A DNA stretch of 64,000 nucleotides from Cladocopium goreaui (taxonomy: Eukaryota; Sar; Dinophyceae; Suessiales; Symbiodiniaceae). A program made the position numbers and the translations under genes. Location of the stretch: NCBI GenBank assembly GCA_947184155.2, contig CAMXCT020001868.1, positions 372,001 to 436,000 of the forward strand. Reading direction: 5' to 3'. How positions within the stretch are numbered: the stretch's first letter is position 1; each line of letters opens with the position of its first letter. Shown here in pieces: positions 7,720 to 37,044 of this stretch. The notes under the pieces were generated by a model, which made no database searches, was not told the origin of the DNA, and saw only the letters and a program-made list of their open reading frames with translations.

Positions 7720-7920
7720 TGTTAAAGGGAACGAAGGAATACTGTAGCTGCATATGTTGTACATATGCACAGATTTGCGTGGGACGCCGTCATGGCTCAA
7801 GACCCACTGCGAGGACAAAAATAGCGCGCTCTGCCGTTGCATGGACTGACAGCTCCGACTATCAGCACATAGGGAACCACAACAGAAAAGGTATCCAGAA
7901 CAAGGATCAGTTTGTTCACA
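7720..7920 (+). repeat. 5' long terminal repeat
   Basis: Starts TGTTAAAGGGAACGAAGGAA and ends TTTGTTCACA. It is homologous to 26631-26825: start block, a hairpin at the same place (GCATATGT-TGT-ACATATGC, 7750-7768), a GGCTCAAG block (7794-7801) and the end block AACAAGGATCAGTTTGTTCA. Similarity is only partial, roughly two thirds of positions by eye. No TGG-type primer binding site follows directly; the next bases are GGTTATCAGCC. A promoter would be expected inside but I cannot identify one. Confidence 0.7.
7794..7801 (+). promoter_or_regulatory. Spliced-leader-like GGCTCAAG in the 5' LTR
   Basis: GGCTCAAG equals the last eight bases of the conserved dinoflagellate spliced leader. The same octamer sits at the equivalent place in the 3' LTR. 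An 8-mer is expected about twice by chance in this window, so only the shared position gives weight. Confidence 0.25.
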
Positions 7921-7944
7921 GGTTATCAGCCGTAGGGCTCATTT

Positions 7945-7957
7945 CTCCCGCCGGGAG
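7945..7957 (+). promoter_or_regulatory. CTCCCG-C-CGGGAG hairpin in the retrotransposon 5' leader
   Basis: Perfect 6-bp stem with a one-base centre, 25 bases downstream of the 5' LTR. The context ATTTCTCCCG...GAGTGGTA recurs near the 3' end of the element at 26360-26382. Position in the untranslated leader suits an RNA packaging or dimerisation signal; that role is inference. Confidence 0.4.
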
Positions 7958-8039
7958 AGTGGTACCTGCGTGCTGGTAGCCGGGCCGTCCGAGCAATTGA
8001 TTGAGGACGCAAAGGACCAATCAGCTCATCGTCGCAAAG

Positions 8040-11000
8040 ATGCAAGGCGGCAGCGGAGATTCGCGCACCACGCAGTTTACCTTCAATGAGAACGCTGCTA
8101 TGCCGGTCGAGGAGGTCAATCAATCTTCCCCTGGTGACACGGCAGACAGTGGCGGGATACGCTCTACCCGAACTACACAGTCCGGATGGCAAGTCACATC
8201 AAACAGACGAAGAATATTTACCCAAAGTACACCTAGATCTTCTCGAAACAGTGCTCGAAGTGATGTTGTCCGCCAAGGGCACCGACCATCTCGAGGGCGT
8301 ACTACTCCAAGGGACAGATCCACCAGGGCCGTGACCGACCGAATTGGTGAGAGGACCGGGGATAGTCGTGTTAAGAGGAGATCAACGGATACTTCTGTGG
8401 CTAGTGAACCTATTGCCATGATAGAGGAACTACGGGCACAATGTCAATCCCTACGTAATCAGCTGAACAACATGGAAGCATACGCTGCGTCTAGAGATCA
8501 ACTGATTCATGACATCGAGATCAGATTCACTGAGTATCTTCGGGAACACAACCAGAATGTAGTTGATGAGGTCAACGCACTCAATAATAGATTGTCATGT
8601 TCCGCAAATGAGGTTGCAGAATATCAAGCAGAACTAATGGTAGCATCTCAGGAAGACGAAGGTGCAACAATACGCATCCAAGACCTTGAACGCCGAGGTG
8701 CCCTAATGGAACATGGTGCACGACGGATCCATCAACGTGGTATGGAGATCCAGGAAGAGTACAAGGATGAAGTACATCACCTTCAAGGACTATTGGGTAA
8801 TACGGAGGCAAGACTGCAACAACTTCATCAAACCAATGTCTTAACCACCGATATTGCCAATCGACTATACAATGAAGGTCAAGAAATGCAAACAGATTTC
8901 CAGAACTCGATCATGGAATATCGTAATCGATCCGAAATGGCATCCTTCTCTAGTAATCAACTTGAAGTGATTAGCCAACAACAATCAATCGCAGTTCATG
9001 AATTATCTGAGCGAAATCAGCTATTGAGTGAAGCTTTGGTTCAGTCTCGTAAACAGGCCGAGCTGTATGAGAGCAGTATCGATGAGATCACTAGAGAATC
9101 TAGGAAGAAGGTGTTCGAGGCAAATCAGGCCAAATTGGAAAGTGATCTGAAGCATCGAAACACTGAACATGATACCGTCAGAAGGATTGCATCATACAGG
9201 AACCAAGAGGCCGAAGCAATATCACACCTGAGGCTTGAATCACAGGCTAGCGCAAACTCAATCGCAAGGGCAGAGCACTATGAGGAGCTCTATGCCAACG
9301 AGCAGGAGATGAACTGCGAATTGAAGGATGAGATCAAGTTGCAGAACACGAAGTTACGAAGATCGTTGACTCAGGGTTCTACGACCGACGGTCGTGGCCC
9401 CGATGAGATGCTTGTTGAAGATCTACGTAATCAAGCTAAGATCGCTCAAATCAGGGTTCAGGACCTAGATCATGAAGTTCACGAATGTTTACAAGAAAAC
9501 TTGTTGTTAAAAGAAAGGTTGGCTGAAGTTGCGGATGTAGGGGCGTCGTCCCTCACCAATGCTGAAGTCCGAACTCTAAAATCTGAACTTGAGAGTGAGC
9601 GCAAAATGAAGTTGGCTAGTGGTGTTCAACAATATGAGAGATCATGCATGTTCATGGGGGAAATCCAGGATAGGGATGAAAAGATCGGTATCAAGAATTC
9701 TGAGATTATGGACATGAAAGGTCAAGTAGATGAAATGAAAAGAAGTCTCAAGGATTCTGAAACGTCCGTATCTAGGGTCAGCCCTGACACACTTCCCTAT
9801 TCGGCAGGCATTCCCAACTACGATCTCGCATCAAGACTAGTCATCGACAAACTGGAGAATGACGTGAGTGAGGCTAACTGTGAAAACGCTATCCTGAAGT
9901 CTTGGGTTTCGCAGATCGACAAGGAGTTGAACTATGAGACAAATGTGGCTCATTCCTATCGTGAACATGCTGTACCTCCTCAACGACAACCTTCTCAATC
10001 AAGCAAAAGAATCACTGATCTGCTGAAAGAGGTGGACAACAAGATTGCTGACGGAACTGAGAGGGAATACTACAAGCCACCGAGTGGATGGGGCGGTCCG
10101 CCTGACCCTGATGGACCTCCTGACCCTTTCGGGCCTAATGGTCCAGGACCACCTCCGGAACCTCCAGGTTTACCTTCAGTTCGAGGATCACAACGCGATT
10201 CAGCAGATGATGTCTCCACAGCAGCTTACACTGCAGAAGAAGTGCCAAGAATGTCAAGACGGGAGGCCGACAAGGTCTACGTAAGCCCATGGCCTAAACA
10301 ACAGAATCTTGGAGTTTGGCAGTCAGATCTCATTAAGAGTGTTGTTCTTTCTGCAAATGATGGGGACAAAGCCGCATGGGAAGCATGGTTACAACCGGCT
10401 ATTCGACCAAATCCTGACATCGAGCTATTAAATGGCAGTGGAGGGCAGCGATATCAGTCAATCGACGCCAAGTTGTCAATTGCGTTGTCAAATGTGATAG
10501 CCCAAGCCGGTGATGTTGCTCGTCATGTAGCGATCAAATTGAGATTGAGGACACAAAGTCATAGTCGAAGAGGAACCTATGTCATGGGACGGGAAATCTT
10601 GGCCATGATCCTGGAGCACTTCAGAACCCCAGGTCAACGAGAGACAGCCTTCACTATGGAGCACATCGTGTCAATGAAGTATCTCGGTGACTCAAACCTG
10701 GAAGTGTTCTATGAGAAGTGGATGGAGATGGTATCAAACATGATGCCGGATGATGTACCTCCTGATGATTGGCTTCGTGATGCTCTATACAAGAAGATTC
10801 GAAATTCGAGCCTTATGCTGTTTGACATCAAGCAGTACGAGTCATGGATTGAGGGAGACCATAGACGAAACTATCGTTATCTATTGGACGTCATCGAAAG
10901 GCACATCTCCAGAATCAGAGAGGACAAGCATGTGGCCGCTAGAGAGAAGTATGCAAGAGATTTTGCAGGTGGCGGCAAACCTTCAGCTCCTGCCCCAAAT

Positions 11001-14000
11001 CCGACTGCTGCTGCACCGGATGCAAACCTAAAAGCGAAGCCTAAGGCTACTCCCAAGGAGAAGGCAGCACCCAAGGCGAAGGCCAAGGCCGATGCAGCTC
11101 CAGTTCTACCATCTCCTCAGCCGAAACAGCATGCGAAAGGGAAAGGAAAAGGTCAAGGGAAAGGAAAGGATCGAGCAAACAGCCGAAGTACCAGCCCTAG
11201 ATCCAAGAAGAAAATCCCATGCCATTTCCACTTCATCAAGAAAGCATGCAGAAAAGGCAAAGATTGCGAATACAGTCACGACCAAAAGGTGTTTGATGCG
11301 AACAAGAACGCAAAAGGCAATGGTCGGAAGCCAGGAACTCCAAGAAGTCAATCTCCGGCAAACAAGACCAAGAAGATTGATGAGCCATGCTGGCATTGGG
11401 CTAAAGGCAAGTGTCGGTATGGAGACAAATGCAACAAACGCCACGATCCTCATCTATTCAACACTGCTCCAAACACTGAAGCACCAAGCTCAAAGGCTAC
11501 ACCTGCACTTATCCATGATTGGAGTGATGATGAAGGGACGTTCCATAAGGTTGCATCGAACGTGATCAAGAAGAAGGTCAGATTTGATGAGTCGAAGAAT
11601 CACGTTCAAACTTACGTGAAGAAGGACTTCGTGAAGTGCAGCCGGAAATCCCAAACTACTCCCAAAGGTCATGGTAAAGTTGGTAAGCCCACTGATCAGG
11701 TAAGGAAAGATGAGCAATGGTCTTATTCATGTAGGTTAGCCTCGAGCCGAGGGAAAGCAATGGCTATTCTGATCGATGAGAAGGGTGAGTACAGTGACAT
11801 TGATGAAGTCCTGGTCATCGTCGGCCCTAGCATGGACATTCTGATCAGACTCGACGTCGAGGACGATGAGGTGTCCAGGGAAGTTTTCGTGGAGAACTAT
11901 GTTCAGCACATTGAAGGTCGATATGGCAAAAGGGGCAACACAATGTGTATCACTGTTCCTGTTGAGGAGAGAGATAAGAGATTCATATTGGATTCTGGGA
12001 GTGGTCATGATCTCATTTCATCCACACGAATAAGTAGAATGGATCTCCCAACTTATGATGACAAGGTCGTCAACTTCCACACTGCAAATGGGGTAACGTG
12101 TTCGACCAAACGGTCAAGTATCAAGTTCGAGGCATTCAGCGAACCAGCAGAAGCACACATCCTGGAAGATACACCTTCAGTGCTCTCAATGGGAAAGCGG
12201 TGCGTCGACCTTGGTTATTCATTTGTATGGCCGACAGGACGAACTCCATTCATGTTAGATCCCAACGGCAACATCATCGAAATGACCGTCAAAGACTACA
12301 TTCCCTATGTGAGCGTCGATCAAGAGAAGAGAAAGTTGAGATCATCCTGTGTGGAAAAGATTATGGCAGTTCTTGATGACGGATGCTCAACGTCAGAAGG
12401 CGAAGGTCTTTTGGTCATTGATGGAGAAAGTGGGGATGAGCTTGAGGATCTTTCCGACTCCGTTGGACGATCCGATGTTAAGTCTCCCAAAAGATCAGTG
12501 AAGAAACGTAAGAAAGCAAAATTAAGAAGTGATCAACACGAAATTGCTGTTGGAAGTGATGCAGGTGATGATGATGAAGTATCGGGCTTTGCCGATGAGT
12601 ATGCCGAGTTTGAGGACGACGGATACGATCCCAGCATCGCACCCGATGACATCCACGGAGATCATCAAATCGAAGTTGAAGAAATTCCTGAAGATGGAGG
12701 AGGTGAAGATGACGATGATGTCATTGACGTTGATGAGGAAGATGGAGGAGTCCGATTGAGTAAGAGGGGAACTTTGAAGAATGAGGCAAGATCGAAGATT
12801 CATCTTCTAACTCATCGCTATAAGAACCCATATTGTGAGTCGTGCGTGCGTGCCAAGATGAAGCACAGGAAAACGTTCAGAGGAGCATTTCAGCGCAAGC
12901 TCACAAAGTTTGGGGACCTGATCACATTCGACTATGTTGACAACCGTCGTATTGCTGAACAGGACTATGGCGACGACAAAACCATCTTTGTCATCAGGGA
13001 TAGATACACGGGGATGCTTCAATCTTACCCTTCTGCCAGAAAGGACACTGATGCAGTTATACGTGCGGTCAAACAGTTTATGGGCCGTCGTAAGATTCGA
13101 GAAGCATATTCCGATGATGCCCCGCAGTTCGACAAGGCAATGAAGATCCTGAAGATCCCAATGGACACTTCCTTGGCCGGAAAGACCAAGCACAACTCAC
13201 TTGCAGAAAGAACTAACCAATTCGTGCTCGTGGCGGCAACAACATGTCTACTTGAGGCAGGAATTCCACCATGCTTTTGGATGTACGCCATTAGATGTGT
13301 CAGCCATTTGCTAAACATCGAGCCCAACGATGATGAGGTCAGTTCTTGGTGCAAACTTCATGGAGAAGAATTCAAAGGAAAGATGATACCCTTTGGTGCC
13401 CTCGTGTGCTTCAAGCCCAGTGGTTCACGTGAACGAGAACAACAACACAAGTTTGACCCTATGGGAATTCCTGGAGTGTTCGCCGGATACTCCATTGGTC
13501 CCGGGCTCCATTGGTCAAGAAAGTACAGGGTATGGGCGCTATGTGATTGGAGTAAGCAGAACTTAGCCTATGATGCCGAGAAGCCCATCGCCAAGCTGAG
13601 GACTCCACACTACACTGAAAGGGTTGAACTAAAGGAACCCCTTGAATTCCCATGTAAGTTAGAGTATGAAAGGATCAATGTTTCCATTGAAGGATTGAAA
13701 GTGAAAGATCGTCTTGAAGGAAACCCAGAAATTCTACCGCCACCTCCACCGGATGATGATGATGAAGGTGGAGACGATGATGATGGTCATGGTGGTGGTG
13801 GTGAACCTTCGTCGAAGGTCCCACGTGAACCAACTGAGGGAGAGTTGGAGGCTGAAAGGCACTTTGACGCAATATCTGAAAGATTGGGACCACCGGGTAT
13901 CGACAAGCCAGCACATCCAGATCTTCATGTACCAGAAGGAGGACCAGATCATTACTCCGTCGGGAAGGCTGGGGATGGGGTCGTATACCTGAATGACGAT

Positions 14001-16673: not shown

Positions 16674-17604
16674 GGTGTATCAGAAGGGTCTTTCTGGTAA
16701 AGAACAAGTACAACAACTACCCGGTATGGATCCCATATTGGTTGTTAAGACGCCAACTTTCTTCAGAAAGCGACCACCCGGTGTATCATTGCCTCATGAT
16801 TGTTTGAGAAGTACCTGGATACTATCTCATGGCAAATGGATCAAGGTTGAGGATCGAGTTCCACCCGTTCAACAACAAGACCGTTTTGATCAATGGGTAG
16901 AACGAGCTTGTTTCCAATACCATCCGTGTCAATTTAGTATATCACCGTCGGTGATTACTAGGCAATCAGCTGGTGTTGTCTCACCGGGACACCTGGCGTC
17001 AACAGCACGACAAGGGCTCCATGCTGCTGCGGTGCCGACTCGTCAGACTACAGTCCTGAAGTATCCTCAGTTAACTGTGGGGGTAGGTCAACTATTTTGT
17101 CATCAATCCCATGGAAACGAACCCACAACCATTCATGCAGCTCCATGTGGTACTGCTCGGGTGATCAACACGCTCCTTCGAGTTGTTCATGGGGGGAGTT
17201 CTGGATGGGGTAGTCTTCCAATGGGATTTCCTCCGACGGGGGACCCCGATGATGATCCATATCCCACAGAAAACAAAGATCCCAATCGACGACGAATTGT
17301 ATTCGCCGGTGGTGACGTGATTGCTGGTAGGGTGTCAAAAGACAAAGCCTATAACCCATCAATGTCATCAAGAAAGGGAAAGAAAATATCCAAAAATGAA
17401 AGTGATCAAGATGAGTGGATATGGAAGGATGAAACAACATTGATGAGAGTGCACAAAGTACCAAGAAGAAAGATGTTTACCCCCAAAGAGGCTGACTTTC
17501 TGCCATGTAAGCTGAGACGGTTTAGAGATGAACGGGAAACCAACCAAGTGTTTCAGTCAAGTGGGAGATTGATCCACGACTCATGGAGATTGGTGGGGAA
17601 ATAA
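16627..17604 (+). CDS. Accessory ORF segment 2a of the retrotransposon, unknown function
   Basis: This frame is +1 to gag-pol and overlaps its last 47 bases. The first usable ATG is at 16627. Deleting one T from the TTTTT run at 16637-16641 would fuse the end of pol (VPNF) directly to PYTEIPILPPEVY, so the segment probably began as a continuation of the polyprotein. The 325 residues include DPILVVKTP, STWILSHGKWIKVEDRV and RFDQWVERACFQYHP, then a charged stretch with many Lys/Asp. No domain recognised. It ends with TAA at 17602-17604, right after a GGGG run where the reading continues in the next frame. It could be expressed by +1 frameshifting, or the shift could be a mutation or assembly error. 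Confidence 0.6.
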   Translation: MFQIFPYTEIPILPPEVYQKGLSGKEQVQQLPGMDPILVVKTPTFFRKRPPGVSLPHDCLRSTWILSHGKWIKVEDRVPPVQQQDRFDQWVERACFQYHPCQFSISPSVITRQSAGVVSPGHLASTARQGLHAAAVPTRQTTVLKYPQLTVGVGQLFCHQSHGNEPTTIHAAPCGTARVINTLLRVVHGGSSGWGSLPMGFPPTGDPDDDPYPTENKDPNRRRIVFAGGDVIAGRVSKDKAYNPSMSSRKGKKISKNESDQDEWIWKDETTLMRVHKVPRRKMFTPKEADFLPCKLRRFRDERETNQVFQSSGRLIHDSWRLVGK

Positions 17605-18634
17605 CATCGAGAAGACCAATAAAAGAAATGAATTTTGGACAGGGACCACTACCTTCAAGATCATATCCAATGCAGACATCAAAGATGTGATGGACAGCGG
17701 GTCTGACGTGGAGGACAGGGCATCGTGCCAGGACACTGTGGTCACCTGTATCCTTGATGGGAACATGAAAATCATTCCGTTGGATGACATGTTTATAGCC
17801 CATCATTACAAGTTGAAGCATGAGACCAGAAAACAAAATGATTGGGATATTCAGATGAATTTGCATCGAAAGAATGGGAAGATCCTGACATATCATTTCA
17901 AGCAATCCTATGCTGATTTTCTCGGGAAGATACTCAATGACGTTACCATATCACTCAACGTCTATGAGATGAAGGATGATGTCCCATGCTTGCTCCTTAT
18001 GTGTGCCGAAACGCAAAGTATCATCACCAAGATTCACAAACAGAGTCGGTTTAGGATGATGCATGTGGTCACAATCACCGAAGATGACAACCTCATGTCC
18101 AACTACGGAAGGGCAAAATGGAGACGTTGCATCAGGGGTCCTAGTGACTGCGTGTTCTTTGCGGGACCTTGCACCGGTGGTTCACCGTGGAATCGGTTAA
18201 ACAAAAACGTGAGTGAGGTCACAGCACACAACATCAGAATGAAAGCACTTCTTTATTGGGAGCTATGGGAAGAGTTCACATTGTGTCTGCAGCGTGTACA
18301 TGTTTTGCATGCAATGGCATTGTTGGAACTACCTCGAGGATGCGATTATTGGAATGATGAGAGAATGAAGTTTCTGATCAATGGGACCCAATCAACTGTG
18401 CATGACTTTGATGGATGCATGTATGGTTTGAAGTCACAATTCAAAGATGTTGGGACCGCAATCAAGAAACCGTGGAGGATCGTATCATGGGGGGTTAAGT
18501 TCTTTGACTTGCATGCGAAATGTGATGGCTCACACACTCACGGTCATGTGCGGGCAGAGAAACACGTGCAACACAATTATATACCGAGAAGATTGTCAGA
18601 TCTATCCTTCGAGGTGTCACCAATCAAATGTTGA
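17573..18634 (+). CDS. Accessory ORF segment 2b, cytosine-methyltransferase-like motifs
   Basis: This frame is open from 17573 without an early ATG (first ATG 17690). It takes over from segment 2a at the GGGG run (17595-17598), reading NNIEKTNKRNEFWTGTTTFK. The central part has VFFAGPCTGGSPWNRLN (Cys codon at 18170) and, about 50 residues later, LLELPRGCDYW (Glu codon at 18326), then DGCMYGL, KKPWRI and KCDGSHTH. A Pro-Cys motif followed by an E-x-P motif at this spacing recalls motifs IV and VI of C5 DNA methyltransferases, but the usual SAM-binding FxGxG motif is not clear. Methyltransferase capture by dinoflagellate LTR elements is documented, which makes the idea reasonable. The frame runs out at TGA 18632-18634, while the protein-like reading moves to the next ORF's frame near 18584. 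Confidence 0.5.
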   Translation, partial: STTHGDWWGNNIEKTNKRNEFWTGTTTFKIISNADIKDVMDSGSDVEDRASCQDTVVTCILDGNMKIIPLDDMFIAHHYKLKHETRKQNDWDIQMNLHRKNGKILTYHFKQSYADFLGKILNDVTISLNVYEMKDDVPCLLLMCAETQSIITKIHKQSRFRMMHVVTITEDDNLMSNYGRAKWRRCIRGPSDCVFFAGPCTGGSPWNRLNKNVSEVTAHNIRMKALLYWELWEEFTLCLQRVHVLHAMALLELPRGCDYWNDERMKFLINGTQSTVHDFDGCMYGLKSQFKDVGTAIKKPWRIVSWGVKFFDLHAKCDGSHTHGHVRAEKHVQHNYIPRRLSDLSFEVSPIKC

Positions 18635-21600
18635 TCAACAACGCTTACGGAAGGAGATATCGACCAAAAGTTCCAGATGATATGAACGACCATAAATCGA
18701 AGTCATGTGCATGCATCATTGTGAGTGACCTTGAACTTGAGGTTAATGAGAAGACCATCAATGAACAATTATTCATTAACTTCATCACCCAACGAGGCGG
18801 TGTGAAGGTGAAGCTGAGGTTGTATCCACGACGTGGATCAATATTGGCGGATCCGGATCCCGTTAGAGGTGGATTGAAGGTGAAGTCGGGCTGCTACCTG
18901 CGTCGTTGGTGCGCCTTGACGGATCCGGATTCCGCGTACCTCACTTCGGTCTTCGCAATGGCTGGAACTGACCTTGTGATCCCTTCAGCGGCCAAAGGCA
19001 TTAGTTTGCTGAAATCAACTCTGTCCCTCATCCAAGAGAAGAAACAAGAGCACAACCTTCCTGCTCCATTCTCAACCTATGAGGAGGCAAACTTCAGGGG
19101 CTACAAGGACAAGGACCTCGACGAATGGTTGGATCGAGTGAAGATTTCTCCTCCTGTCGTTGTGGCCTTAGCTTTTGTCATGGATAGAAGTGGCAGGGCA
19201 TTCGTAACGCATGCAATCAGGTTGCTCATGAAAATGCTGTCAAAAGTGACCAACGAAAATGAGTTGACGATGTCTGCCATTAGTTTCATCGACAAAGGGG
19301 CCCGATTATCAAAGTTGGTGGAAGGGGCTGCTAGAAATCCAGATGAGAAGAGCATCATGCAGATGTTGTGCACCTTCGAGTGCGCAATCAGAATAGATGA
19401 ACTATGGGATACCCTCAAAGACCACTATACTGGGCAAAACAGTATGATCAACAAGGAGATCACAGTCAAAGACTTGCGCGACAAGATCGCAAATACTAGC
19501 CCAGCAAACCTCGGATCATTGAACCAGACGTATCCTCCGTATGGAAGTCCTTGCTACCAAATCCGAAAGAGGACGAACTTCGAGGAGATTGCACGTCGGA
19601 AATGGGAGAAGTGGTCGTTTGAAGTGATGCGGAGAGAAGAACCTGAACCATATGAAGTTGAGAACCGCATCCAGTATCTGGTCAACATCATGTACGAGGA
19701 GAGCTACAGCCTTGGCTACGCACTCCGACGTCACAATGCAAGAGCGACCAGCAGCCAGGGTAAAACCATCATCGTCCAGAATGTCCTGGAAGACTGGATG
19801 TCAATGAGTTATGATCTCAGCTTGGAGCGGACGGCAGCTGTTGTCCATTTGCAAACCATTCTCATGATCTCCAAGATGCTACATGAGTGGATGACAAAAT
19901 TGGAAAACTTTAAATCAATGTCATACCTGAGCGGGATCATCAAGACTGATCTGGTCAGAATGAAACAGGCCATTGACCTCCGTGACGACCTATGGGAGTT
20001 GGGGGGTTACAACATTGAGAGGGCCGACCAGGGCATGTTTGAGGAGGTGGAGAAACGGAACAGGACATTTTCCTGTATCCGCGACTATGTGACGACCACT
20101 GCCACTACACAGATGGGCCAAGGGGCCACAGAGGTCTCCCACATTGATGGCTGGGACATTCCGCTGATGCCGAGAGACGGCAGAAACCCTCCAAGTCAAC
20201 CGGATCATCCAGGTTGGGATCCTTCACCTATCAGAATGATGAATGACAAGCAACAGAGGGAAGCCGATGCACAGCGGGCACAACAGCAACAACAACAGAC
20301 TGGGCCTAGTAGTTCCACCGCCGGTGGACACGATGGTTACAGCTCTGCAGCTGGGAGTGCACCACCACCAAAAGCTCCACCATCGAAGGCAAGGCCATCT
20401 ACACCTCCTGCAAGAAAGGACTGGGTGATTCCTCGGGTACCGAATGGATATCTTTTCAGAACTTCATCAATGCCCGATCAAAGGAACTCCGAGTTCATCA
20501 CTTCAGCATGGATGGACGAGCGGGATCACTTTCTTCTATCAATCGTCCAAGGACCCGCAGCTCAAGCAGCCAGCACATTGGGATCAGCACCTTGGGCACA
20601 ATATTTGAGGAGAGTGACCGCATATGCCTGCATGATCTTCGGAGTTTGCAATCCGGGGGTCGTAACCGAGGACACTGCATCCACTATATCCGAGAAGGAT
20701 TGGCTCAGGTGCTACAGCCACATCGTCCGCAAGTACATGCTGACGCGGACCGGATGCTATTTGTCGACAGCAGGTATGCTCATGATGCTAGGGCATCACG
20801 ACGTGAACGTCGCCAACCAGTCCGACCTGGGCCGCATCAAGAAGATGATCACCAACCCACTTGCTTGCAGGATCATCGAAGCACCAAGCGGTCCAAGAGA
20901 TCATGACATGTTGGCAGGTGATTTCAGGGCTGGAACAACCATCCTCATCACCGACCTGATGTTCCGCGTGGGAACCCAAAGTGGGACGCATGGCATCCAA
21001 ATGGGATTAGCTGACATGGGATGGGAAAGTGTCGAGGTGTTCAAAATCCATGATTCCGAAGCAGAACGACCCCTTGAGCAATTCCTCGACACCCTTGACA
21101 AAGTCAAGCAGCATCTCAGCACGGATACCGTCGACGATGGTTTGATAACTGTGCACCTTTGGTTGTCATTGCAGTTCCTACATGCACCAAAACCACCTCA
21201 TTGTGTTATGCTTGAGAACGACTTCAAGCATCAGTTTGTCAAAGGGGTGCTCGATCTTGATCAAGTCACGTCCCGACCCCTGATGGTCGCCATCAACAAT
21301 GACTCCATGTTCAACGGAATGGACTCTGTCACGTCCAGGATCGCAGATGAGCTGATTGAGAAGATGAGGCTCCAAGGGATCCTGGTGACATCGGACCAGA
21401 GAATGTGGCGGTCAATGTATTCACAATTTGGGAAACAATATCCAATTTTGAGTACAACCAAGAAGGGGACTTTGGGAAAGACGGCAATTTGGTCTGTCAT
21501 CGAGAAGAATCTATTTCGCCAAAGGGTCTTCCTCATGTGTGCCACGAACAGGGAATATGTATCAGTTCTCAATGAGGGAGCGTTCAAACCTGATGAATCG

Positions 21601-24600
21601 GGCATCATCGCCAAAGTTCTGGAGGATATGACCGGACCAACTGAGGCGTTCAAGATCGCAGGCGGCGAAATGACCCCTGGTGACTATGCAAATGACGACA
21701 CCACAATCTTCCAGCGAGGCCCTGGAACCGCCGTGAACAGATTCACCAAAGACAAAAGGTTCAAGACCAGTTGGGTCGAACCGGTGGTCGGCACCCATGA
21801 GCTGGAACCAGTGGTTTCCGATCGATGCATGTGGTTCACCATTGACAAGGAGAACAACGACATCCTATGCGGAAGCTGTAGAGGCGCAGTGACAATGGAT
21901 GAGATCGAGACGTGCCAGTCGAGACCAACCCATTGCATTAATTGCTCCGCCAACACCCAGGACCATTACAAGCGTTCAGCTCCCACATTGGAGGCCAGGA
22001 AGTCCGTACTACTCCTTGCAGCCAGATTGAAGGTTGCATTCGAGGATCTTGGTGTTGACATTGTTGACATCAATCAAGGATTCCAAACATGGCTCACATT
22101 TACTGCGTCTTCGTTGATTTCAAATGCATCGTTGGCGTATGGGGAGCACTTGATGAAATCTCTATCTCACATGGGAGGAGTCAGAATTTCGAAGAGGCAA
22201 GCCCTGGAAATTTTCCGGAACGGACGCGGCAAGCAATTCAGCATATATCGCGAAAGAGTTTTCGATGATGTTGCAAAGAAGTGGCTCTTGATCTACAGAG
22301 TCACAAAGGATTGCGGAAATGTCGCATACAAAGACTTCTTCGAAAAGGTTGCCGTTCCCGAGGTGAAGGAGAGGAACGAGATCTTTGGATTCTCCCGTGC
22401 ATCTGCCGAGAAAACTGGAGATATCATCGAGTTCTGGCTTGGTGTCTTGGACGTGGCCAATATGGCCAAAGGAGTCGTGGATGTTTTCAATGCCAGTGTC
22501 GATCCAGCAGAGTATCTCAATGGATTGGAAAAGGCATTGGCTCAATTCACATCGACCTCCAGAACCTCAAGCACCATCAATGACAAGAGACGGGGATCCT
22601 TCGACTGCACGCTGCAAACCGCAGAAGCTGAAAGGGTCATGAAGATCATCCATGCAATCCCCGGATATGATTCACTGGCCAACTTCTGCTGCCTCACGGA
22701 GTGGGAGAAGGATCAGGTGTTTTCTCATTATCGGAGGAAGAACAACATCACAGGGGGTGACGCTAGCATGGGCGCTGATGCCGATGCCAAGCCAGGTGAC
22801 GAGTCGTCGGCTCACCCTGGGGAGGAGGAAGCTGATGAGCCAGCAAATGATCCCACCGATGTTGTCAGGGACTCAGAGATTTCCGGGAAACAACAACTTT
22901 TGGATGCATTGGGAAAACTCTTTACCGTCTCTGAGGATGTCAATGTGTGCTTGTATTGTGGTAGCACCAAACATGGCCATCTTGAATGTGGACATGAGAA
23001 GAGGGATGAAGTCAGAAAGGTGCTAAAGGCCGTCCGAGCGTCGCTCGAGGCTGATAGTCCAACATCTGATGACGTCGACATGGAGCCTCCCGAGCACAAG
23101 AAGGACGGTTCAGGTGCTACTGATGGGTCGGGGCAAACGGATGAACCTACAAAATCGAGGTTTAGTGAACACCAATGGTACGACAGCATCAGGACTATGT
23201 CTGAAGTTGGTGACCTTGATGAGTTTGGTAGATTCTGCATAGAAGGACGTGATGTTACAAAGCTAGGACCACAGAACATTGTTGACCTCAACGAAGTGAT
23301 CCGAGACGCTATCGTCAGAGGAGGAGGTGACTCCTGGTCTGTGCCAGACTTCATGGCAAGCTACTCTGATAACAACATCAGGAAGCCCTTCTACAAGAGA
23401 GTCGAAGCGCCGCAAGATGGTTTCTTGAAAATCATCCCAACAACGGGGGCACATTTCTTCAACTGCTCCTACTTTGGCGGTGTCGAATATGCAGCCAACT
23501 ACCGCTTCGAGACTGGCAACCGACTCAATCCCTACGAGGACAAGGTGAGTACCTCACTAAACAGGATCTTGCGGCACAACGTGGGGAAGGTATCAGAACA
23601 ACAGAGTCTGTCATGTGATGACGCCGGCTGGGTGCCCATCGACGAGGTGCTCAAATGTGAATCCATCTGGAGGCACGAGTACGCACGCTGGCCACATGTA
23701 TTCCTTGCCCCAAAAGGGAGAGCAAATGATCAGAATGCCTGGAATGTCAATGAGGCAAACTACCGCATGACATTGCTCTTCAAGATCATGTTCCACTGTG
23801 CCCGGTACGGACGTCGTGTTCGTGAACAAGTCTTGGCATTTGGTATCAACAAGGACATTGAGCGCACCAGCCTGACATGCATTGACAACAAGGTCGATGC
23901 GGACACGAACATCCCCGATGAAGGTCTACTGCTCTACCCAGTGGCGGTCCGTGCTCCTACGGGGCACAAAGAAGGATCTTCAAGGGACGACGTCTCATTG
24001 CTGTCCTCATTACTTTCACATCCAATCGCGCCCAACACCATTTTGTCGTTACCGGTCTGTTTCCACATCACCAAGAAGACCAACCTTCGAAGCATTTGGA
24101 GGCAGGGATTAATTCCGGGAGGTCTTGGAGAAGGTCATCGGATGTTCACGTTCTTCAACCCGTATGTGCCATGGGATCACAGATCATGGACCATCACGAA
24201 GAGCGTTGATACGCGAAGGGGGGACTACATATGCTTGTTCGTCCCGACCGAGACCTTGATGGTGGAATATGGCGGTCGACTGACTGACTCGGGACAGATC
24301 GTTTCACCAAAGATCATCCCGTTCTCGGCAATCAAAGGAGGATGGATTCAGGACCCCAAGGACCAAAACAATAAGACATGGCTCAGGTTGTTCGTCCCGT
24401 CGGGCGACGACCAGGTAGTCCGGTCTGGAACTATCAAATCAAGAACGGTAGCCACCAAGGAGTCCATCTTGAGAGTTGCAAGTCAGTGCATCGACGCCGA
24501 AGACCAACCGTTTGACGAAACCGCCATGGATGCCATGAACATCGTCAACCAATTCAAGAGCAACCTCATTGAGCCTGGCGGACAAGAGCAATACCTGGCC

Positions 24601-26136
24601 CGCATCAAGCTGATTGACTACATAGTCGAACGCAAAAGGGTGCAAACATCAGGTTGCCGCCATTGTCCTCACTGTCTCAATGAGACGCCGACAAAGCTAG
24701 CAGTGTGTCTAGTTTGCTGGACGGAACTTGAAAGCTGTGGAATTCGTCCATATCGGCTACAAGCTCCTGAAGACGATGAAGATGAGGCCACAAAGAAAGA
24801 GATCGATGAAGAAGTTCGTCGACAAGAAGAATCGTTGTTCAAGGATACGGTCAATCAAGCACAAGAAAACGTATCCGAATCCAACGACTATGGCTTCAAT
24901 CCTGACGAGGTCGACTACAATGAAGGCGATGATGAGGAAATGGATCAGGAGGAGGAAGCTCAACAAGAGGACGACGAAATCGTTGAAGAAGACGACGATG
25001 AAATGGACGTCGAACCTGAAGATGAACCCTCTTCCAAACTTCCAGCATGGACCAAGAACCTCGAGAGCGGCAGCAAGGGTATGCCAGAAGACGGACTTAT
25101 CAACAATGATGTATCCGAGGCCGCGGCTCACTTGTATGACAACGCAGTCATGTCAAAGGTCATCACAATGTTCAGGTTTTACTATAAACAGAGAGTCACT
25201 ATGACCCCAGAGGAGTACCATGAGATGATGACGGAAACCAAGCGAGTCCGGCTGGACCTGGACGACTTCTGCCCTTACACAGGAGAAGACCAGGATGGCA
25301 ACCTCAAGCGACCGACGGAGCTGGAGCTGGACGAACTCTTTCAGGAGAAAGGGAAGAGGAATTCATGGTCAGAAGGAGAGAAGCTGTACTCAGGACGACC
25401 AAGAAACATGATGATGCCTGTCATCAAGACTTTAGAGATCTATGAGAAGATGATGGAATTTCTAGTACGCGCCGGGTACACTCCAGAGTCATTAGGCTTC
25501 CTCATGCCAATGAACCGAATGCAGGCTGATGCCCAAGGGAAACAGGAGATGCGAGTGACAATCAGCAATTTCCTTCGGCGACTGCTCAAAGGGACCTTTC
25601 CAGAGCACGAGTCGTACACCTTCTTTCGCTCCGGGAGCCACGGCTTCCCCAACTGCATCGAACTTCCAGCCTTCTCAGTATATCTGAGCCTAAGGGAGAA
25701 AGAACAGAGAGTAGAACTGCTCTTTGCCGCCCAACAATGTGGCATTCCTTTACCCCAAAATTTTGTCAGCAAGATGGCATATGCTATTCAGCTGGCTGAG
25801 GCCGAGGCGCAGAGGGGAAAGACCGAGATGAAAACGAAGATGGCTCCAACCCTTGGCGACGAAGTGGTGAGTGAAGTGTTCAAAGCGGTTGGACATACTG
25901 CAGCTTCTAAGTTTGCCAAACCACCCGCACAACCTTCACAGAAACCTGAAGGCACTGGTTCGGCATCATCCTCATCGGCCAGCGCACCAAAGGCTAAGAC
26001 TATGCCGAAATCCCATGAACCATCAAAGGCACCGCCTGCAAAGCCTTCATCGCCGAAAGCTGCTCCGAAACGTGCGGCAGGATGGGAGAGAACTCCAACA
26101 GCACCTCAATGGAAGAAAGTCCGCCGTGAGCAGTAA
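18628..26136 (+). CDS. Giant accessory ORF 3 with zinc motifs and Tpt1/KptA-like domain (2502 aa)
   Basis: ATG at 18628 overlaps the previous stop (ATGTTGA). The frame is protein-like from about 18586 (EKIVRSILRGVTNQ), so the true junction may be earlier; an alternative start is ATG 18958. Residues 1-640: mostly helical, no family recognised, then a Gln/Pro/Ser linker. 640-1075: alpha/beta-like, unassigned. Zinc ribbon C1081/C1084 with C1103/C1106. CCHC zinc knuckle C1441-x2-C1444-x4-H1449-x4-C1454. Residues about 1640-1905 resemble Tpt1/KptA RNA 2'-phosphotransferase: LNRILRH (R1649, H1650), GWVPIDEVL (1667-1675), VRAPTGH (R1775, G1779, H1780), CFHITKKTNLRSIWRQGLIP (from 1811), GHRMFTFF (1836), RRGDYICLFVP, and SPKIIPF near the end. 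Then a zinc ribbon C2013/C2016, C2027/C2030, a long acidic stretch and a Pro/Lys/Ser tail. Tpt1 enzymes use NAD+ to remove RNA 2'-phosphates. Activity here is unproven: the usual YHGT is FHIT. Confidence 0.85.
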   Translation: MLINNAYGRRYRPKVPDDMNDHKSKSCACIIVSDLELEVNEKTINEQLFINFITQRGGVKVKLRLYPRRGSILADPDPVRGGLKVKSGCYLRRWCALTDPDSAYLTSVFAMAGTDLVIPSAAKGISLLKSTLSLIQEKKQEHNLPAPFSTYEEANFRGYKDKDLDEWLDRVKISPPVVVALAFVMDRSGRAFVTHAIRLLMKMLSKVTNENELTMSAISFIDKGARLSKLVEGAARNPDEKSIMQMLCTFECAIRIDELWDTLKDHYTGQNSMINKEITVKDLRDKIANTSPANLGSLNQTYPPYGSPCYQIRKRTNFEEIARRKWEKWSFEVMRREEPEPYEVENRIQYLVNIMYEESYSLGYALRRHNARATSSQGKTIIVQNVLEDWMSMSYDLSLERTAAVVHLQTILMISKMLHEWMTKLENFKSMSYLSGIIKTDLVRMKQAIDLRDDLWELGGYNIERADQGMFEEVEKRNRTFSCIRDYVTTTATTQMGQGATEVSHIDGWDIPLMPRDGRNPPSQPDHPGWDPSPIRMMNDKQQREADAQRAQQQQQQTGPSSSTAGGHDGYSSAAGSAPPPKAPPSKARPSTPPARKDWVIPRVPNGYLFRTSSMPDQRNSEFITSAWMDERDHFLLSIVQGPAAQAASTLGSAPWAQYLRRVTAYACMIFGVCNPGVVTEDTASTISEKDWLRCYSHIVRKYMLTRTGCYLSTAGMLMMLGHHDVNVANQSDLGRIKKMITNPLACRIIEAPSGPRDHDMLAGDFRAGTTILITDLMFRVGTQSGTHGIQMGLADMGWESVEVFKIHDSEAERPLEQFLDTLDKVKQHLSTDTVDDGLITVHLWLSLQFLHAPKPPHCVMLENDFKHQFVKGVLDLDQVTSRPLMVAINNDSMFNGMDSVTSRIADELIEKMRLQGILVTSDQRMWRSMYSQFGKQYPILSTTKKGTLGKTAIWSVIEKNLFRQRVFLMCATNREYVSVLNEGAFKPDESGIIAKVLEDMTGPTEAFKIAGGEMTPGDYANDDTTIFQRGPGTAVNRFTKDKRFKTSWVEPVVGTHELEPVVSDRCMWFTIDKENNDILCGSCRGAVTMDEIETCQSRPTHCINCSANTQDHYKRSAPTLEARKSVLLLAARLKVAFEDLGVDIVDINQGFQTWLTFTASSLISNASLAYGEHLMKSLSHMGGVRISKRQALEIFRNGRGKQFSIYRERVFDDVAKKWLLIYRVTKDCGNVAYKDFFEKVAVPEVKERNEIFGFSRASAEKTGDIIEFWLGVLDVANMAKGVVDVFNASVDPAEYLNGLEKALAQFTSTSRTSSTINDKRRGSFDCTLQTAEAERVMKIIHAIPGYDSLANFCCLTEWEKDQVFSHYRRKNNITGGDASMGADADAKPGDESSAHPGEEEADEPANDPTDVVRDSEISGKQQLLDALGKLFTVSEDVNVCLYCGSTKHGHLECGHEKRDEVRKVLKAVRASLEADSPTSDDVDMEPPEHKKDGSGATDGSGQTDEPTKSRFSEHQWYDSIRTMSEVGDLDEFGRFCIEGRDVTKLGPQNIVDLNEVIRDAIVRGGGDSWSVPDFMASYSDNNIRKPFYKRVEAPQDGFLKIIPTTGAHFFNCSYFGGVEYAANYRFETGNRLNPYEDKVSTSLNRILRHNVGKVSEQQSLSCDDAGWVPIDEVLKCESIWRHEYARWPHVFLAPKGRANDQNAWNVNEANYRMTLLFKIMFHCARYGRRVREQVLAFGINKDIERTSLTCIDNKVDADTNIPDEGLLLYPVAVRAPTGHKEGSSRDDVSLLSSLLSHPIAPNTILSLPVCFHITKKTNLRSIWRQGLIPGGLGEGHRMFTFFNPYVPWDHRSWTITKSVDTRRGDYICLFVPTETLMVEYGGRLTDSGQIVSPKIIPFSAIKGGWIQDPKDQNNKTWLRLFVPSGDDQVVRSGTIKSRTVATKESILRVASQCIDAEDQPFDETAMDAMNIVNQFKSNLIEPGGQEQYLARIKLIDYIVERKRVQTSGCRHCPHCLNETPTKLAVCLVCWTELESCGIRPYRLQAPEDDEDEATKKEIDEEVRRQEESLFKDTVNQAQENVSESNDYGFNPDEVDYNEGDDEEMDQEEEAQQEDDEIVEEDDDEMDVEPEDEPSSKLPAWTKNLESGSKGMPEDGLINNDVSEAAAHLYDNAVMSKVITMFRFYYKQRVTMTPEEYHEMMTETKRVRLDLDDFCPYTGEDQDGNLKRPTELELDELFQEKGKRNSWSEGEKLYSGRPRNMMMPVIKTLEIYEKMMEFLVRAGYTPESLGFLMPMNRMQADAQGKQEMRVTISNFLRRLLKGTFPEHESYTFFRSGSHGFPNCIELPAFSVYLSLREKEQRVELLFAAQQCGIPLPQNFVSKMAYAIQLAEAEAQRGKTEMKTKMAPTLGDEVVSEVFKAVGHTAASKFAKPPAQPSQKPEGTGSASSSSASAPKAKTMPKSHEPSKAPPAKPSSPKAAPKRAAGWERTPTAPQWKKVRREQ

Positions 26137-26362
26137 ACCAATTACCTCTACCCATCAAAATGATCACTGACCTATAAGATGTGTATCGTCTTTGTGAACA
26201 GATGATCAGGAAAAGACCAACTGAGTGGACTCTGAGCGAGGCAGTAGACTAATTCGCTTAGGTTCAAGACTTTTGATATTCCCAATCTGCATGTGATTCT
26301 GCACAGTGCACGTGAATTCGTTAGTTAGCATCGTAAATCTTTGGTAGCGAAGCGATCCATTT

Positions 26363-26375
26363 CTCCCGACGGGTG
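26363..26375 (+). promoter_or_regulatory. CTCCCG-A-CGGGTG hairpin, 3' region
   Basis: Context ATTTCTCCCGACGGGTGAGTGGTA closely matches the 5' leader copy at 7941-7963, with one stem mismatch. Possible element-specific RNA structure. Confidence 0.35.
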
Positions 26376-26492
26376 AGTGGTATGCCTAGCCAACGTAGAA
26401 AAGTAGGTGCTAGCTAGCAATAATTCGCGCTGTACAGCTTGATGGAGCGCCGATGCATCGACAGCCAAGGAGTAGGCGAACCCCGAACCATT

Positions 26493-26507
26493 ATTCCCGA
26501 CGGGAAT
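26493..26507 (+). promoter_or_regulatory. ATTCCCG-A-CGGGAAT hairpin, 3' region
   Basis: Perfect 7-bp stem with a one-base centre, followed by GTGGGGAAGGG. The stem has changed its outer pairs (CT...AG to ATT...AAT) but kept pairing, which suggests the structure rather than the sequence is conserved. Confidence 0.35.
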
Positions 26508-26618
26508 GTGGGGAAGGGAGAGCCGAATGGCATGTTTATGTAGATAGGCGTAATTCAAGTAGCAGAACCATCTTAATTCAAAGTTCCCTCTCTCGTGTCC
26601 GTGGTTCGAAGATACCAC

Positions 26619-26630
26619 GGGCATGGGGGG
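26619..26630 (+). other. Polypurine tract
   Basis: GGGCATGGGGGG ends exactly at the first base of the 3' LTR (TGTTAAAGGG at 26631). This is the position where plus-strand DNA priming starts in LTR retrotransposons. Confidence 0.6.
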
Positions 26631-26825
26631 TGTTAAAGGGAATGAAGTGAAACAACATGTACAGCATGCAGTGTTAACACAACATGCTGTGACCGCCAAA
26701 CATTGGCTCAAGCGTATGGAGAAAAGGGACGCGTCGTGTTGCTCCGCATGTCAGTTGCCGGCTACCACTAGCAAGAGTACCACAGGTCTGAAATAACATC
26801 CAGGACAAGGATTCATTTGTTCGCA
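26631..26825 (+). repeat. 3' long terminal repeat
   Basis: Starts TGTTAAAGGGAATGAAGTGA and ends ATTCATTTGTTCGCA. Matches the 5' LTR in start, end, the hairpin position (ACAGCATG 26661-26668 with CATGCTGT 26683-26690, enclosing GTGTTAACAC) and TTGGCTCAAG (26703-26712). It is 195 bp against 201 bp and diverges strongly from the 5' copy. Confidence 0.7.
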
Positions 26826-36500: not shown

Positions 36501-37044
36501 TTGGATGTCTGTCATTTTTGTCATTTGCTCATTTATTTTGATGATCTTGTCTCGCTCTTTGAGAATGAAACCCGCGCAGCAACACAACAACATGTTTCAT
36601 TGAACATGACTCTTCATCACTTGCATATAATTGAAAAGACTCGAAACTACTTTTCATCTGAAGACTTAGTCAAGTTGTTGTTCCACACAAAGCCGCCAGG
36701 TAGCAATGATGGCATCCGTTGGACTTGTGGGTCAGCATTTCCTGAAGTTCCCTGGCTTCGAAAATTCACCGGCTGGTTTCTCCATCATGGGCAGGGGAGA
36801 AGGTGTGCTTGGCTTCTTCACCATCTTCCTTTTGTCCGGAGTCTTGGAGCTGGCATGGAGGGAGGACCCAAGTGGTGAGAAGGAGCCTGGCAACTATGGC
36901 GACCCCTTCGGTGTTCAGATGTACAATGACGAGATGAGAATGAAGGAGCTCAACAACGGACGCATGGCTATGATCTCTGTGCTCGGTATCTTCGCGGCAG
37001 AATGTGCAACTGGCAAAGATGCGATTCAGCAGTTCGGCTTTTGA
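33594..37044 (+). CDS. Light-harvesting (chlorophyll-binding) polyprotein, four LHC domains, five exons
   Basis: Exons 33594-33992, 34207-34812, 35027-35635, 35850-36485 and 36700-37044, all phase 0, give about 864 aa. The introns are 214 bp each and start GTAGCTTGATG; the exons after them start GTAGCAATG. Exon 1: signal peptide, FVAP motif (21-24), second hydrophobic segment (about 53-69) followed by SRNR. This is the three-part leader of dinoflagellate plastid proteins. Each LHC domain has helix 1 with EIKHGR, helix 2 (GVLGFFAIFLLSGVLEL) and helix 3 with ELNNGR; the E and R residues bind chlorophyll and stabilise the helix pair. Domains are joined by a linker with AVVEDVPPPPFQPSEQFG, probably cleaved in the plastid. 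Helix 1 and helices 2-3 are always on different exons. Domain 3 carries a 30-bp in-frame duplication and a lost Ala codon. The stop follows QQFGF. Related to fucoxanthin/peridinin (acpPC) proteins. Confidence 0.92.
33993..36699 (+). repeat. Tandem repeat units (820-850 bp) of the LHC gene with near-identical introns
   Basis: Each unit is one 214-bp intron plus one exon. Units differ by only a few bases, introns included (for example GGATATAATT against GAATATAATT). This points to recent unequal crossing-over or gene conversion. Introns 33993-34206, 34813-35026, 35636-35849 and 36486-36699 all have exactly the same length. A GTAGC direct repeat at both intron edges could be a relic of intron insertion. 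Confidence 0.9.

What the first reader, a model, noticed from the sequence alone, without database searches (positions are those of the whole stretch)
7720..26825. A ~19-kb copia retrotransposon carrying ~9.5 kb of accessory coding sequence
Terminal repeats, polypurine tract and copia domain order enclose not only gag-pol but also a long additional coding region between RNase H and the 3' LTR. Known Ty1/copia elements are mostly 5-6 kb, and envelope-like extras are much smaller. Everything is on one strand and inside the LTRs, so the extra genes would travel with the element. This looks like an undescribed class of giant gene-carrying retrotransposon.
Basis: partly seen in the sequence, partly recalled or inferred. 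Interest (0 to 1): 0.9.

Follow-up and report, generated by a model that had tools for sequence, protein, structure and literature searches.

The report
Giant dinoflagellate jumping gene, RNA-enzyme polyprotein
A 19-kilobase jumping gene present in hundreds of copies in a dinoflagellate genome encodes, in its intact copies, one enormous protein that joins the usual copying machinery to about 3,000 extra residues, including an RNA-end-processing enzyme domain that we found in print for no such element.

Summary
The interval is a ~19-kb Ty1/copia-type LTR retrotransposon and the accessory half belongs to it. The window's own genome is held: ten other copies, fetched because they had two LTRs ~18-19 kb apart, are collinear with the window (two lack ~1.1 kb at the 3' end); 9 of 10 have nearly identical LTR pairs and exact 5-bp duplications. 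None of 23 LTR pairs is closer than 17.8 kb. Corrections: (1) in 2 of 10 copies gag, pol and accessory form one ~6,048-codon frame; the window's separate ORFs are frame breaks. (2) The window's LTRs are only 61% identical because its copy is a mosaic of two real elements, probably an assembly join. The accessory region is under purifying selection (dN/dS 0.03-0.24) and holds a conserved unassigned PCTGGS domain, an SGNH-like fold and a Tpt1/KptA RNA 2'-phosphotransferase-like domain. Divergent copia proteins repeat the order RT-RNase H, PCTGGS, Tpt1. Best reading: an old class of copia elements carrying an RNA-processing module. What the module does is inferred, not shown.

The parts
7720..7920 (+). 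5' LTR (201 bp, TG..CA)
   Evidence: 99.5% identical to the 3' LTR of the copy in contig C3929, which shares this 5' flank
7921..7937 (+). Putative primer-binding site GGTTATCAGCCGTAGGG; resembles an anticodon-arm (half-tRNA) site by eye; tRNA not identified
   Evidence: same place in 10 of 10 copies; 208 exact genome matches; two tRNA pattern searches gave 0
8001..16673 (+). ORF1, gag-pol part (first ATG 8040; 2890 codons stop to stop)
11388..11444 (+). CCCH zinc finger in gag
   Evidence: zf-CCCH_4 E 3.6e-6; motif position
11952..12122 (+). Aspartyl protease (ILDSGSG)
   Evidence: Asp_protease_2 E 0.0036, under its cut-off; motif
12800..13500 (+). Integrase region, approximate: H..CESC, DD and ER motifs read by eye between protease and RT
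   Evidence: Translation; no Pfam integrase match at E<=1
15222..15509 (+). Copia-type reverse transcriptase core, YVDD at 15390-15401
   Evidence: RVT_2 E 4.4e-7; motif
16053..16313 (+). RNase H part (FADADFAG..DDNQG)
   Evidence: Motif positions; assignment to RNase H is recalled, no Pfam hit
16534..17604 (+). Linker segment (ORF2a), in another frame in this copy
   Evidence: P0001 runs through it as one protein
17573..18634 (+). ORF2b: conserved PCTGGS/IEWP/DGCM domain; its end (CAGRETRATQ, 18547-18576) lies in ORF3's frame
   Evidence: a profile of five fragments matched 90 of 229 held proteins
18628..26136 (+). ORF3, C-terminal accessory region (2502 aa; frame open from 18526)
20920..21540 (+). 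SGNH/GDSL-like fold (model residues 160-366); the likely block I reads TDL, not GDS (by eye)
23533..24360 (+). Tpt1/KptA RNA 2'-phosphotransferase-like domain; candidate Arg-His 23572-23577, Arg within 23815-23829, Arg within 24133-24156
   Evidence: Pfam PF01885 E 2.8e-5, 24.7 bits against a cut-off of 26
26619..26630 (+). Polypurine tract GGGCATGGGGGG
   Evidence: CATGGGGGG in front of the 3' LTR in 10 of 10 copies; ATGGGGGG plus LTR start matches 129 genome sites
26631..26825 (+). 3' LTR (195 bp), of another LTR subfamily than the 5' LTR
   Evidence: 99.5% identical to the 5' LTR in contig C871; 61% to the window's 5' LTR
16824..18283 (.). Zone in which the window changes from the C3929 copy to the C871 copy, patchy in between

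Best explanation
It is a giant Ty1/copia LTR retrotransposon (typically 18.7-kb internal region, ~0.2-kb LTRs) of a dinoflagellate. Shown by sequence: the best-preserved copies encode gag, protease, integrase region, RT, RNase H and a ~3,200-residue extension in one frame; copies are dispersed and collinear, and those that can be dated are recent insertions; the extension is under purifying selection and recurs in divergent copia families in the same domain order. The window's copy is a mosaic of two such elements and is frame-broken. Inferred: the polyprotein is cut by the element's protease; the extension's Tpt1/KptA-like domain processes RNA ends for the element with NAD+. The most likely substrate, in my view, is the 3' end of a cleaved tRNA, since the primer site looks like an anticodon-arm (half-tRNA) site as in Drosophila copia (recalled), and cleaved tRNA ends can carry phosphates that block priming (recalled). 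Countering host RNA damage, or capping nucleic-acid ends with ADP-ribose, is nearly as likely. The PCTGGS domain may be a methyltransferase-like enzyme (by eye only). The identity claim is much firmer than the functional one (about 0.35).
For: Ten copies, chosen for LTR spacing, collinear at 94.8-99.9% in the body; LTR pairs 197-200 of 199-201 columns in 9 of 10; 5-bp TSDs exact in 9 of 10, three not in plain TA/CATA repeats (GTAAA, TATTT, and TATTA in an imperfect TA tract). 23 LTR pairs, none under 17.8 kb. One frame of ~6,048 codons in 2 of 10 copies, and a third (C608) 86 codons shorter. Marker 24-mers: RT 247, PCTGGS domain 252, Tpt1 120 exact sites; PCTGGS marker 2.9-3.1 kb behind RT at 70 of 97 RT sites examined; RT marker 8.7-8.8 kb before 36 of 55 Tpt1 sites examined. 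dN/dS 0.03-0.24 in accessory segments against 0.01-0.13 in gag-pol. Family P0064 (4558 aa, 608 members) keeps the order with RT-RNase H 76%, PCTGGS 44% and ORF3 23% identical; another family lies in the same genome. Tpt1 lies C-terminal to RVT_2 in 11 of 11 scanned proteins that have both, 7 of them over the Pfam cut-off. RT and Tpt1 distances correlate (r 0.76, 0 of 5000 permutations).
Against: The window's Tpt1 score (24.7 bits) is below Pfam's cut-off of 26; its ORF3 alone finds no Tpt1 in the PDB and the profile match is weak (E 0.14). Of the tetrad, the His is kept in 12 of 15 sequences (by eye). Seven of 10 copies are broken inside the frame and an eighth stops early; P0001 leaves the frame within the Tpt1 domain. 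23 of 97 RT sites lack an exact PCTGGS marker, 14 of 55 Tpt1 sites lack the RT marker, and 74 of 100 listed PBS sites found no PPT partner, so shorter variants are not excluded. Among relatives, 9 of 62 proteins whose match reaches the end of RNase H stop within 120 residues of it, so the extension is not universal. The primer tRNA was not found. No RNA or protein data. The PCTGGS domain matches no library and its model failed (pLDDT 39).
Confidence: 0.77

Rival explanations
1. Two adjacent elements, or a pol element beside unrelated host genes, happen to lie between two diverged LTRs.
For: The window's LTRs are only 61% identical and its flanks do not match.
Against: Ten other copies repeat the arrangement between LTRs that are nearly identical in nine of them; fixed marker spacing at most sites examined; one continuous frame in two copies.
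Confidence: 0.02
2. The window's copy is a true product of ectopic recombination or gene conversion between two insertions, not an assembly join.
For: The changeover zone is patchy over ~1.4 kb, as conversion tracts can be.
Against: Both parents also appear as contigs: C3929 with matching LTRs and ATATA on both sides, and C871, whose 5' flank ends ATATG as the window's 3' flank begins (a match within TA-rich sequence), and which has only about 16 kb left behind its LTR, less than one element. Contigs C1502 and C608 share a 3' but not a 5' flank, and C429 and C6016 share a 3' flank, which suggests joins inside this repeat elsewhere too.
Confidence: 0.25
3. The accessory region is a captured host sequence carried passively and has no role for the element.
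For: It evolves faster than RT between families (RT distance 0.23 but Tpt1 0.70 between window and P0064), most fetched copies are frame-broken, and some relatives lack it.
Against: dN/dS 0.03-0.24 between subfamilies; the same domain order in proteins whose RT-RNase H is only 36-52% identical; RT-Tpt1 co-divergence.
Confidence: 0.06
4. The Tpt1 domain serves counter-defence or end-capping (ADP-ribosylation of RNA or DNA ends) rather than primer processing.
For: KptA sits in polyproteins of a few RNA viruses and is discussed there as RNA repair against host nucleases (PMC9503650, passages); the fast divergence fits a conflict.
Against: [quoted passage not shown]
Confidence: 0.35

Closest known systems
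Ty1/copia LTR retrotransposons
   Same: TG..CA LTRs, 5-bp TSD, PPT, protease before RVT_2-type RT
   Different: About 19 kb with a ~3,200-residue extension behind RNase H in the same frame. Env-like genes are known in some copia elements (SIRE-1, cited in PMC9289625), but that paper's screen of plant LTR elements saw no domain gain in Copia (passages)
Phalaenopsis Ty3/gypsy AlkB (2-ODD) elements, PMC9289625 (abstract, section 13, passages)
   Same: Giant LTR element carrying an RNA-modifying enzyme
   Different: Gypsy not copia; 25.5 kb, of which two 6.4-kb LTRs; enzyme in a separate 565-aa ORF; m6A demethylase rather than Tpt1
Bdelloid rotifer LTR elements with ORF3 (GDSL esterase, DEDDy exonuclease), PMC5408684 (abstract)
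   Same: Accessory enzymes, including a GDSL/SGNH type and an RNA 3'-end enzyme
   Different: Retrovirus-like lineages with a separate ORF3; no Tpt1 in the abstract
Symbiodinium and Klebsormidium DNMT retrotransposons, PMC5890265 (passages)
   Same: Algal retroelements with an accessory modifying enzyme
   Different: LINE, DIRS and gypsy; that paper says Symbiodinium Copia lacks any DNMT domain
Tpt1/KptA enzymes, PMC6333775 (passages)
   Same: PF01885 match, Arg-His..Arg..Arg candidates, two-lobe order
   Different: Embedded in a retroelement polyprotein, with long insertions; below the Pfam cut-off in this copy

Membership tests
Ty1/copia LTR retrotransposon | Paired LTRs with TG..CA ends | tested here: met
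   9 of 10 copies with LTR pairs 197-200 of 199-201 columns identical (one 3' LTR, C3335, begins CG); the window's own pair is 61% because of the mosaic
Ty1/copia LTR retrotransposon | 5-bp target-site duplication | tested here: met
   Exact in 9 of 10 copies; in plain simple repeats for six of them; absent in the window's mosaic copy
Ty1/copia LTR retrotransposon | PBS and PPT next to the LTRs | tested here: met
   Same positions in 10 of 10 copies; primer tRNA not identified
Ty1/copia LTR retrotransposon | Copia-type RT (RVT_2) | tested here: met
   E 4.4e-7, 30.2 bits, slightly under the 31.6 cut-off; relative P0064 34.5 bits, over it
Ty1/copia LTR retrotransposon | Integrase between protease and RT | tested here: inconclusive
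   Motifs by eye in the right place; no Pfam integrase match at E<=1
Tpt1/KptA RNA 2'-phosphotransferase | Match to PF01885 over the curated cut-off | tested here: inconclusive
   Window 24.7 bits against 26; of 11 relatives with a match, 7 are over the cut-off, up to 95 bits, and 4 are under
Tpt1/KptA RNA 2'-phosphotransferase | Arg-His-Arg-Arg tetrad | tested here: met
   Candidates at all four positions in the window; across 15 sequences R 15, H 12 (counted by eye), R 14, R 14; equivalence of the third and fourth Arg rests on sequence alignment
Tpt1/KptA RNA 2'-phosphotransferase | NAD+-dependent 2'-phosphate removal | not testable with these tools
   Needs an enzyme assay
SGNH/GDSL hydrolase | SGNH fold | tested here: met
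SGNH/GDSL hydrolase | Catalytic serine in GDS block I | tested here: inconclusive
   ITDLMF at the place I take for block I (by eye, no structural superposition printed); so not filed as a hydrolase
C5 cytosine methyltransferase (for the PCTGGS domain) | Profile match to a methyltransferase family | tested here: inconclusive
   No Pfam or PDB match from alignments A5 and A6; only the PC..E.P motif spacing recalls motifs IV and VI, by eye

The most novel reading that the evidence does not exclude
A large, old branch of copia retrotransposons in dinoflagellates replicates with its own RNA-processing module, a PCTGGS-domain enzyme plus a Tpt1/KptA ADP-ribosyl-transfer enzyme made in one ~6,000-residue polyprotein, needed to prepare cleaved-tRNA primers or to protect the element's RNA or cDNA ends. 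It would be the first retroelement-encoded RNA 2'-phosphotransferase system, and could explain why Tpt1-like domains are so abundant in this genome.
Probability: 0.35. Interest if true: 0.87.

Novelty: new variant of a known kind. Interest (0 to 1): 0.76.

Why it matters
Copia elements are usually small (recalled), and a plant survey saw no domain gain in them (PMC9289625, passages). Here markers of a 19-kb copia element occur at hundreds of sites, the copies that could be dated are young, and they share a conserved ~3,000-residue extension with a Tpt1/KptA-like domain; divergent families repeat the plan. If the enzyme acts on the element's RNA, primer or cDNA ends, it shows a new way in which LTR elements handle tRNA primers or host RNA attack. 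It also warns annotators that PF01885 matches in very long 'hypothetical' proteins of dinoflagellates may be retroelement polyproteins, and that assemblies can misjoin at such repeats.

Tried and rejected
Two adjacent elements: rejected by full-length copies. Old age as the cause of the 61% LTR identity: rejected, since each LTR has a near-identical partner in another contig. DNMT identity for the PCTGGS domain: suspected by eye, not found by Pfam, PHROGs or PDB searches (the few PDB hits, such as eIF3J at E 0.028, look like chance); the structure job was too poor to search. Primer tRNA: two pattern searches, 0 hits; the perfect-stem and initiator forms tested are only two possibilities. Foldseek on the ORF3 middle gave no match at E<=0.001; VIA-align then ranked SGNH rows first. 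Rfam at gathering cut-offs and ARAGORN found nothing in the window. A gap near 16.7 kb that the binned comparison shows for C429 and C6016 is an artefact of where I cut the halves (one search has no such gap). Literature: 10 searches in the open PMC library; those aimed at Tpt1/KptA in dinoflagellates or retroelements listed no paper whose title or abstract start describes it; of their hits I looked into PMC9503650 and PMC6333775 only. Chen et al. 2018 on Symbiodinium Ty1-copia is not held and was not read.
Full report
WHAT IS THERE. The window looks like dinoflagellate DNA: it carries a tandem array of chlorophyll-binding genes (PF00504), and the four of 120 listed pol relatives that bear an organism's name are Symbiodinium. 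The genome is held without a name: 1.166 Gb in 6,202 contigs, the window being C1868:372001-436000. Between an LTR at 7720-7920 and one at 26631-26825 lie a leader with a putative PBS, ORF1 with CCCH fingers, protease and RVT_2 RT, three further coding segments in other frames, and a PPT. The two LTRs match at 129 of 213 columns.

IS IT ONE ELEMENT? A search with the 5' LTR gave 40 scored matches of 134 candidates, and one with the 3' LTR 40 of 55. Among these 80 hits are 23 same-strand pairs on one contig, 17.8-39.1 kb apart, 17 of them at 17.8-19.2 kb and none closer. I fetched ten of the pairs in halves, so the ten are selected for LTR spacing; one further pair of that spacing (C5907) was not fetched. 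All ten align to the window in order from LTR to LTR, at 94.8-99.9% in the body; C429 and C6016, which share a 3' flank, lack about 1.1 kb before the 3' LTR. LTR pairs agree at 197-200 of 199-201 columns in nine; the start of C429's 5' LTR is replaced. Five-base duplications are exact in nine of ten, six of them in plain TA or CATA repeats. By 3' flanks the ten are eight loci. So these elements are young and move as a unit.

ONE POLYPROTEIN. In two of ten copies the frame stays open from the leader to near the 3' LTR, 3,095 + 2,953 codons in C5816 and practically the same in C1502; in C608 it stops 86 codons earlier; in the other seven it is broken inside. The homologue P0001 (2,767 aa; cluster of 822 sequences) runs from RNase H through segments 2a and 2b into ORF3, but leaves the frame within the Tpt1 domain. 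P0125 (4,868 aa) runs from gag-pol to the end of ORF3 in one protein. The window's separate ORFs are therefore breaks of this copy. Intact copies exist; I do not say what would mend this one.

WHY THE WINDOW'S LTRs DIFFER. The window is nearly identical to the C3929 copy, including 2.2 kb of 5' flank (99.95% over the 1,871 bases compared), up to about 16.8 kb, is patchy to about 18.1 kb, and equals the C871 copy at all eight informative sites from 18,283 to the end of the stretch compared, 18,569; C871 beyond that was not fetched. The window's 3' LTR is 99.5% identical to the 5' LTR in C871, whose flank ends ATATG, as the window's 3' flank begins; both lie in TA-rich sequence. C3929 has ATATA on both sides. 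The window is thus a mosaic of two real insertions, most simply an assembly join inside a long repeat.

HOW FAR POL AND ACCESSORY TRAVEL TOGETHER. Exact 24-mers: RT 247 sites, PCTGGS domain 252, Tpt1 120; each list stops at 100. Of 97 listed RT sites in contigs that both lists cover (three dropped), 70 have the PCTGGS marker 2.9-3.1 kb behind, four at other distances, and 23 have no exact marker. Of 55 listed Tpt1 sites in contigs that the RT list covers (45 dropped), 41 have the RT marker upstream on the same strand within 40 kb, 36 of them at 8.6-9.0 kb; 14 have none. Of 100 listed PBS sites (of 208) 26 pair with one of 62 listed PPT-LTR junctions (of 129): 15 internal lengths of 18.3-18.74 kb, one 17.6, one 14.07, nine of 20.4-33.4 kb; 74 had no partner. 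No gag-pol-only version appeared, but sites with mismatches were not seen.

SELECTION. Between subfamilies dN/dS is 0.03-0.24 in seven accessory segments (the Tpt1 one overlaps its neighbours) and 0.01-0.13 in four gag-pol segments, six pairs each. Pairs share copies and are not independent; codons with gaps or stops were left out.

BREADTH. P0064 (4,558 aa, 608 members) keeps RT-RNase H at 76%, the PCTGGS domain at 44% and ORF3 at 23% identity, in the same order. The P0011 family, also in this genome (17 scored hits at 88-91%), has pol upstream in the one copy checked, C20. I scanned 14 further copia-type proteins, most chosen because their listing showed PF01885 or other extra domains: 11 carry PF01885 at E<=0.1, 7 of them over the cut-off (up to 95 bits, P0228), and in all 11 it lies C-terminal to RVT_2; in 10 of the 11 the PCTGGS domain lies between, and in P0211 it was not detected. 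Nine of the 120 listed relatives had PF01885 precomputed. Of 62 relatives whose match reaches the end of RNase H, 35 go on for 300 residues or more and 9 stop within 120. RT and Tpt1 distances correlate over 15 sequences (r 0.76; 0 of 5000 permutations) and over the 11 left after removing the window's group (0.61; 0 of 5000), which suggests joint inheritance. In this genome all 150 scored PF01885 hits (of 1,496 candidates) pass the cut-off; three look like ordinary genes (174-180 bits, frames of 185-335 aa), the others lie in frames of up to 4,039 aa. The window's own copy is not among them, and whether those frames hold RT was not tested.

HOW IT LIKELY WORKS. Shown: structure, recent spread of the copies examined, selection, domain order. 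From established knowledge (recalled): LTR elements copy RNA through a tRNA-primed reverse transcriptase, copia types make 5-bp duplications, and Drosophila copia uses a half tRNA. Inferred: the polyprotein is processed; Tpt1 acts on RNA ends. KptA is known from polyproteins of a few RNA viruses, and the text of that survey has no word beginning retrotranspos (PMC9503650).

KNOWN OR NEW. As a kind it is a copia element. Accessory enzymes in giant gypsy elements (PMC9289625: abstract, section 13 and passages), rotifer LTR elements (PMC5408684 abstract) and DNMT retrotransposons (PMC5890265 passages) are known. A ~6,000-residue copia polyprotein with Tpt1 was not found in my searches, which cover only open PMC papers. 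I rate it a new variant of a known kind.

Noticed in passing
flanks of the ten copies, L011-L030: Insertions favour TA or CATA microsatellites: 8 of 10 copies have a perfect run of 10 or more bases within 40 nt of an end, against 4.6% of window positions outside the element. By 3' flank the ten copies are eight loci, six of which have such a run.
   Followed up: partly
33839-37044: Tandem array of ~820-bp units, 95-99% identical, encoding chlorophyll-binding (LHC) proteins.
   Followed up: partly
3885, 28499, 41590, 44487, 49620, 56348, 63442 and others: A ~100-nt ACCCTCTGGTAAACTAACATAGC repeat on both strands; looks like a small non-autonomous element.
   Followed up: no
G000 C429/C6016 and C1502/C608: Pairs of contigs share a 3' flank of the element; C1502 and C608 have different 5' flanks; suggests joins inside this repeat in the assembly.
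   Followed up: partly
P0126 and P0011: A gag-pol protein (2980 aa, 2190 members) that ends just inside the PCTGGS domain and an accessory protein (2837 aa) both list a contig of 286,553 bases; perhaps a conserved frame change or stop splits pol and accessory in that family.
   Followed up: no
P0205, P0193: Other copia-type polyproteins carry dUTPase, and P0205 also NADAR, in front of RVT_2: more accessory enzymes of nucleotide and ADP-ribose metabolism.
   Followed up: partly
G000 C1209:39309, C5523:6512, C1:767266: Three PF01885 hits of 174-180 bits in short frames look like ordinary host Tpt1 genes or contaminant genes.
   Followed up: no
445-2168: Minisatellite region (12-nt units from 579) with long open frames on both strands; probably not genes.
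   Followed up: no
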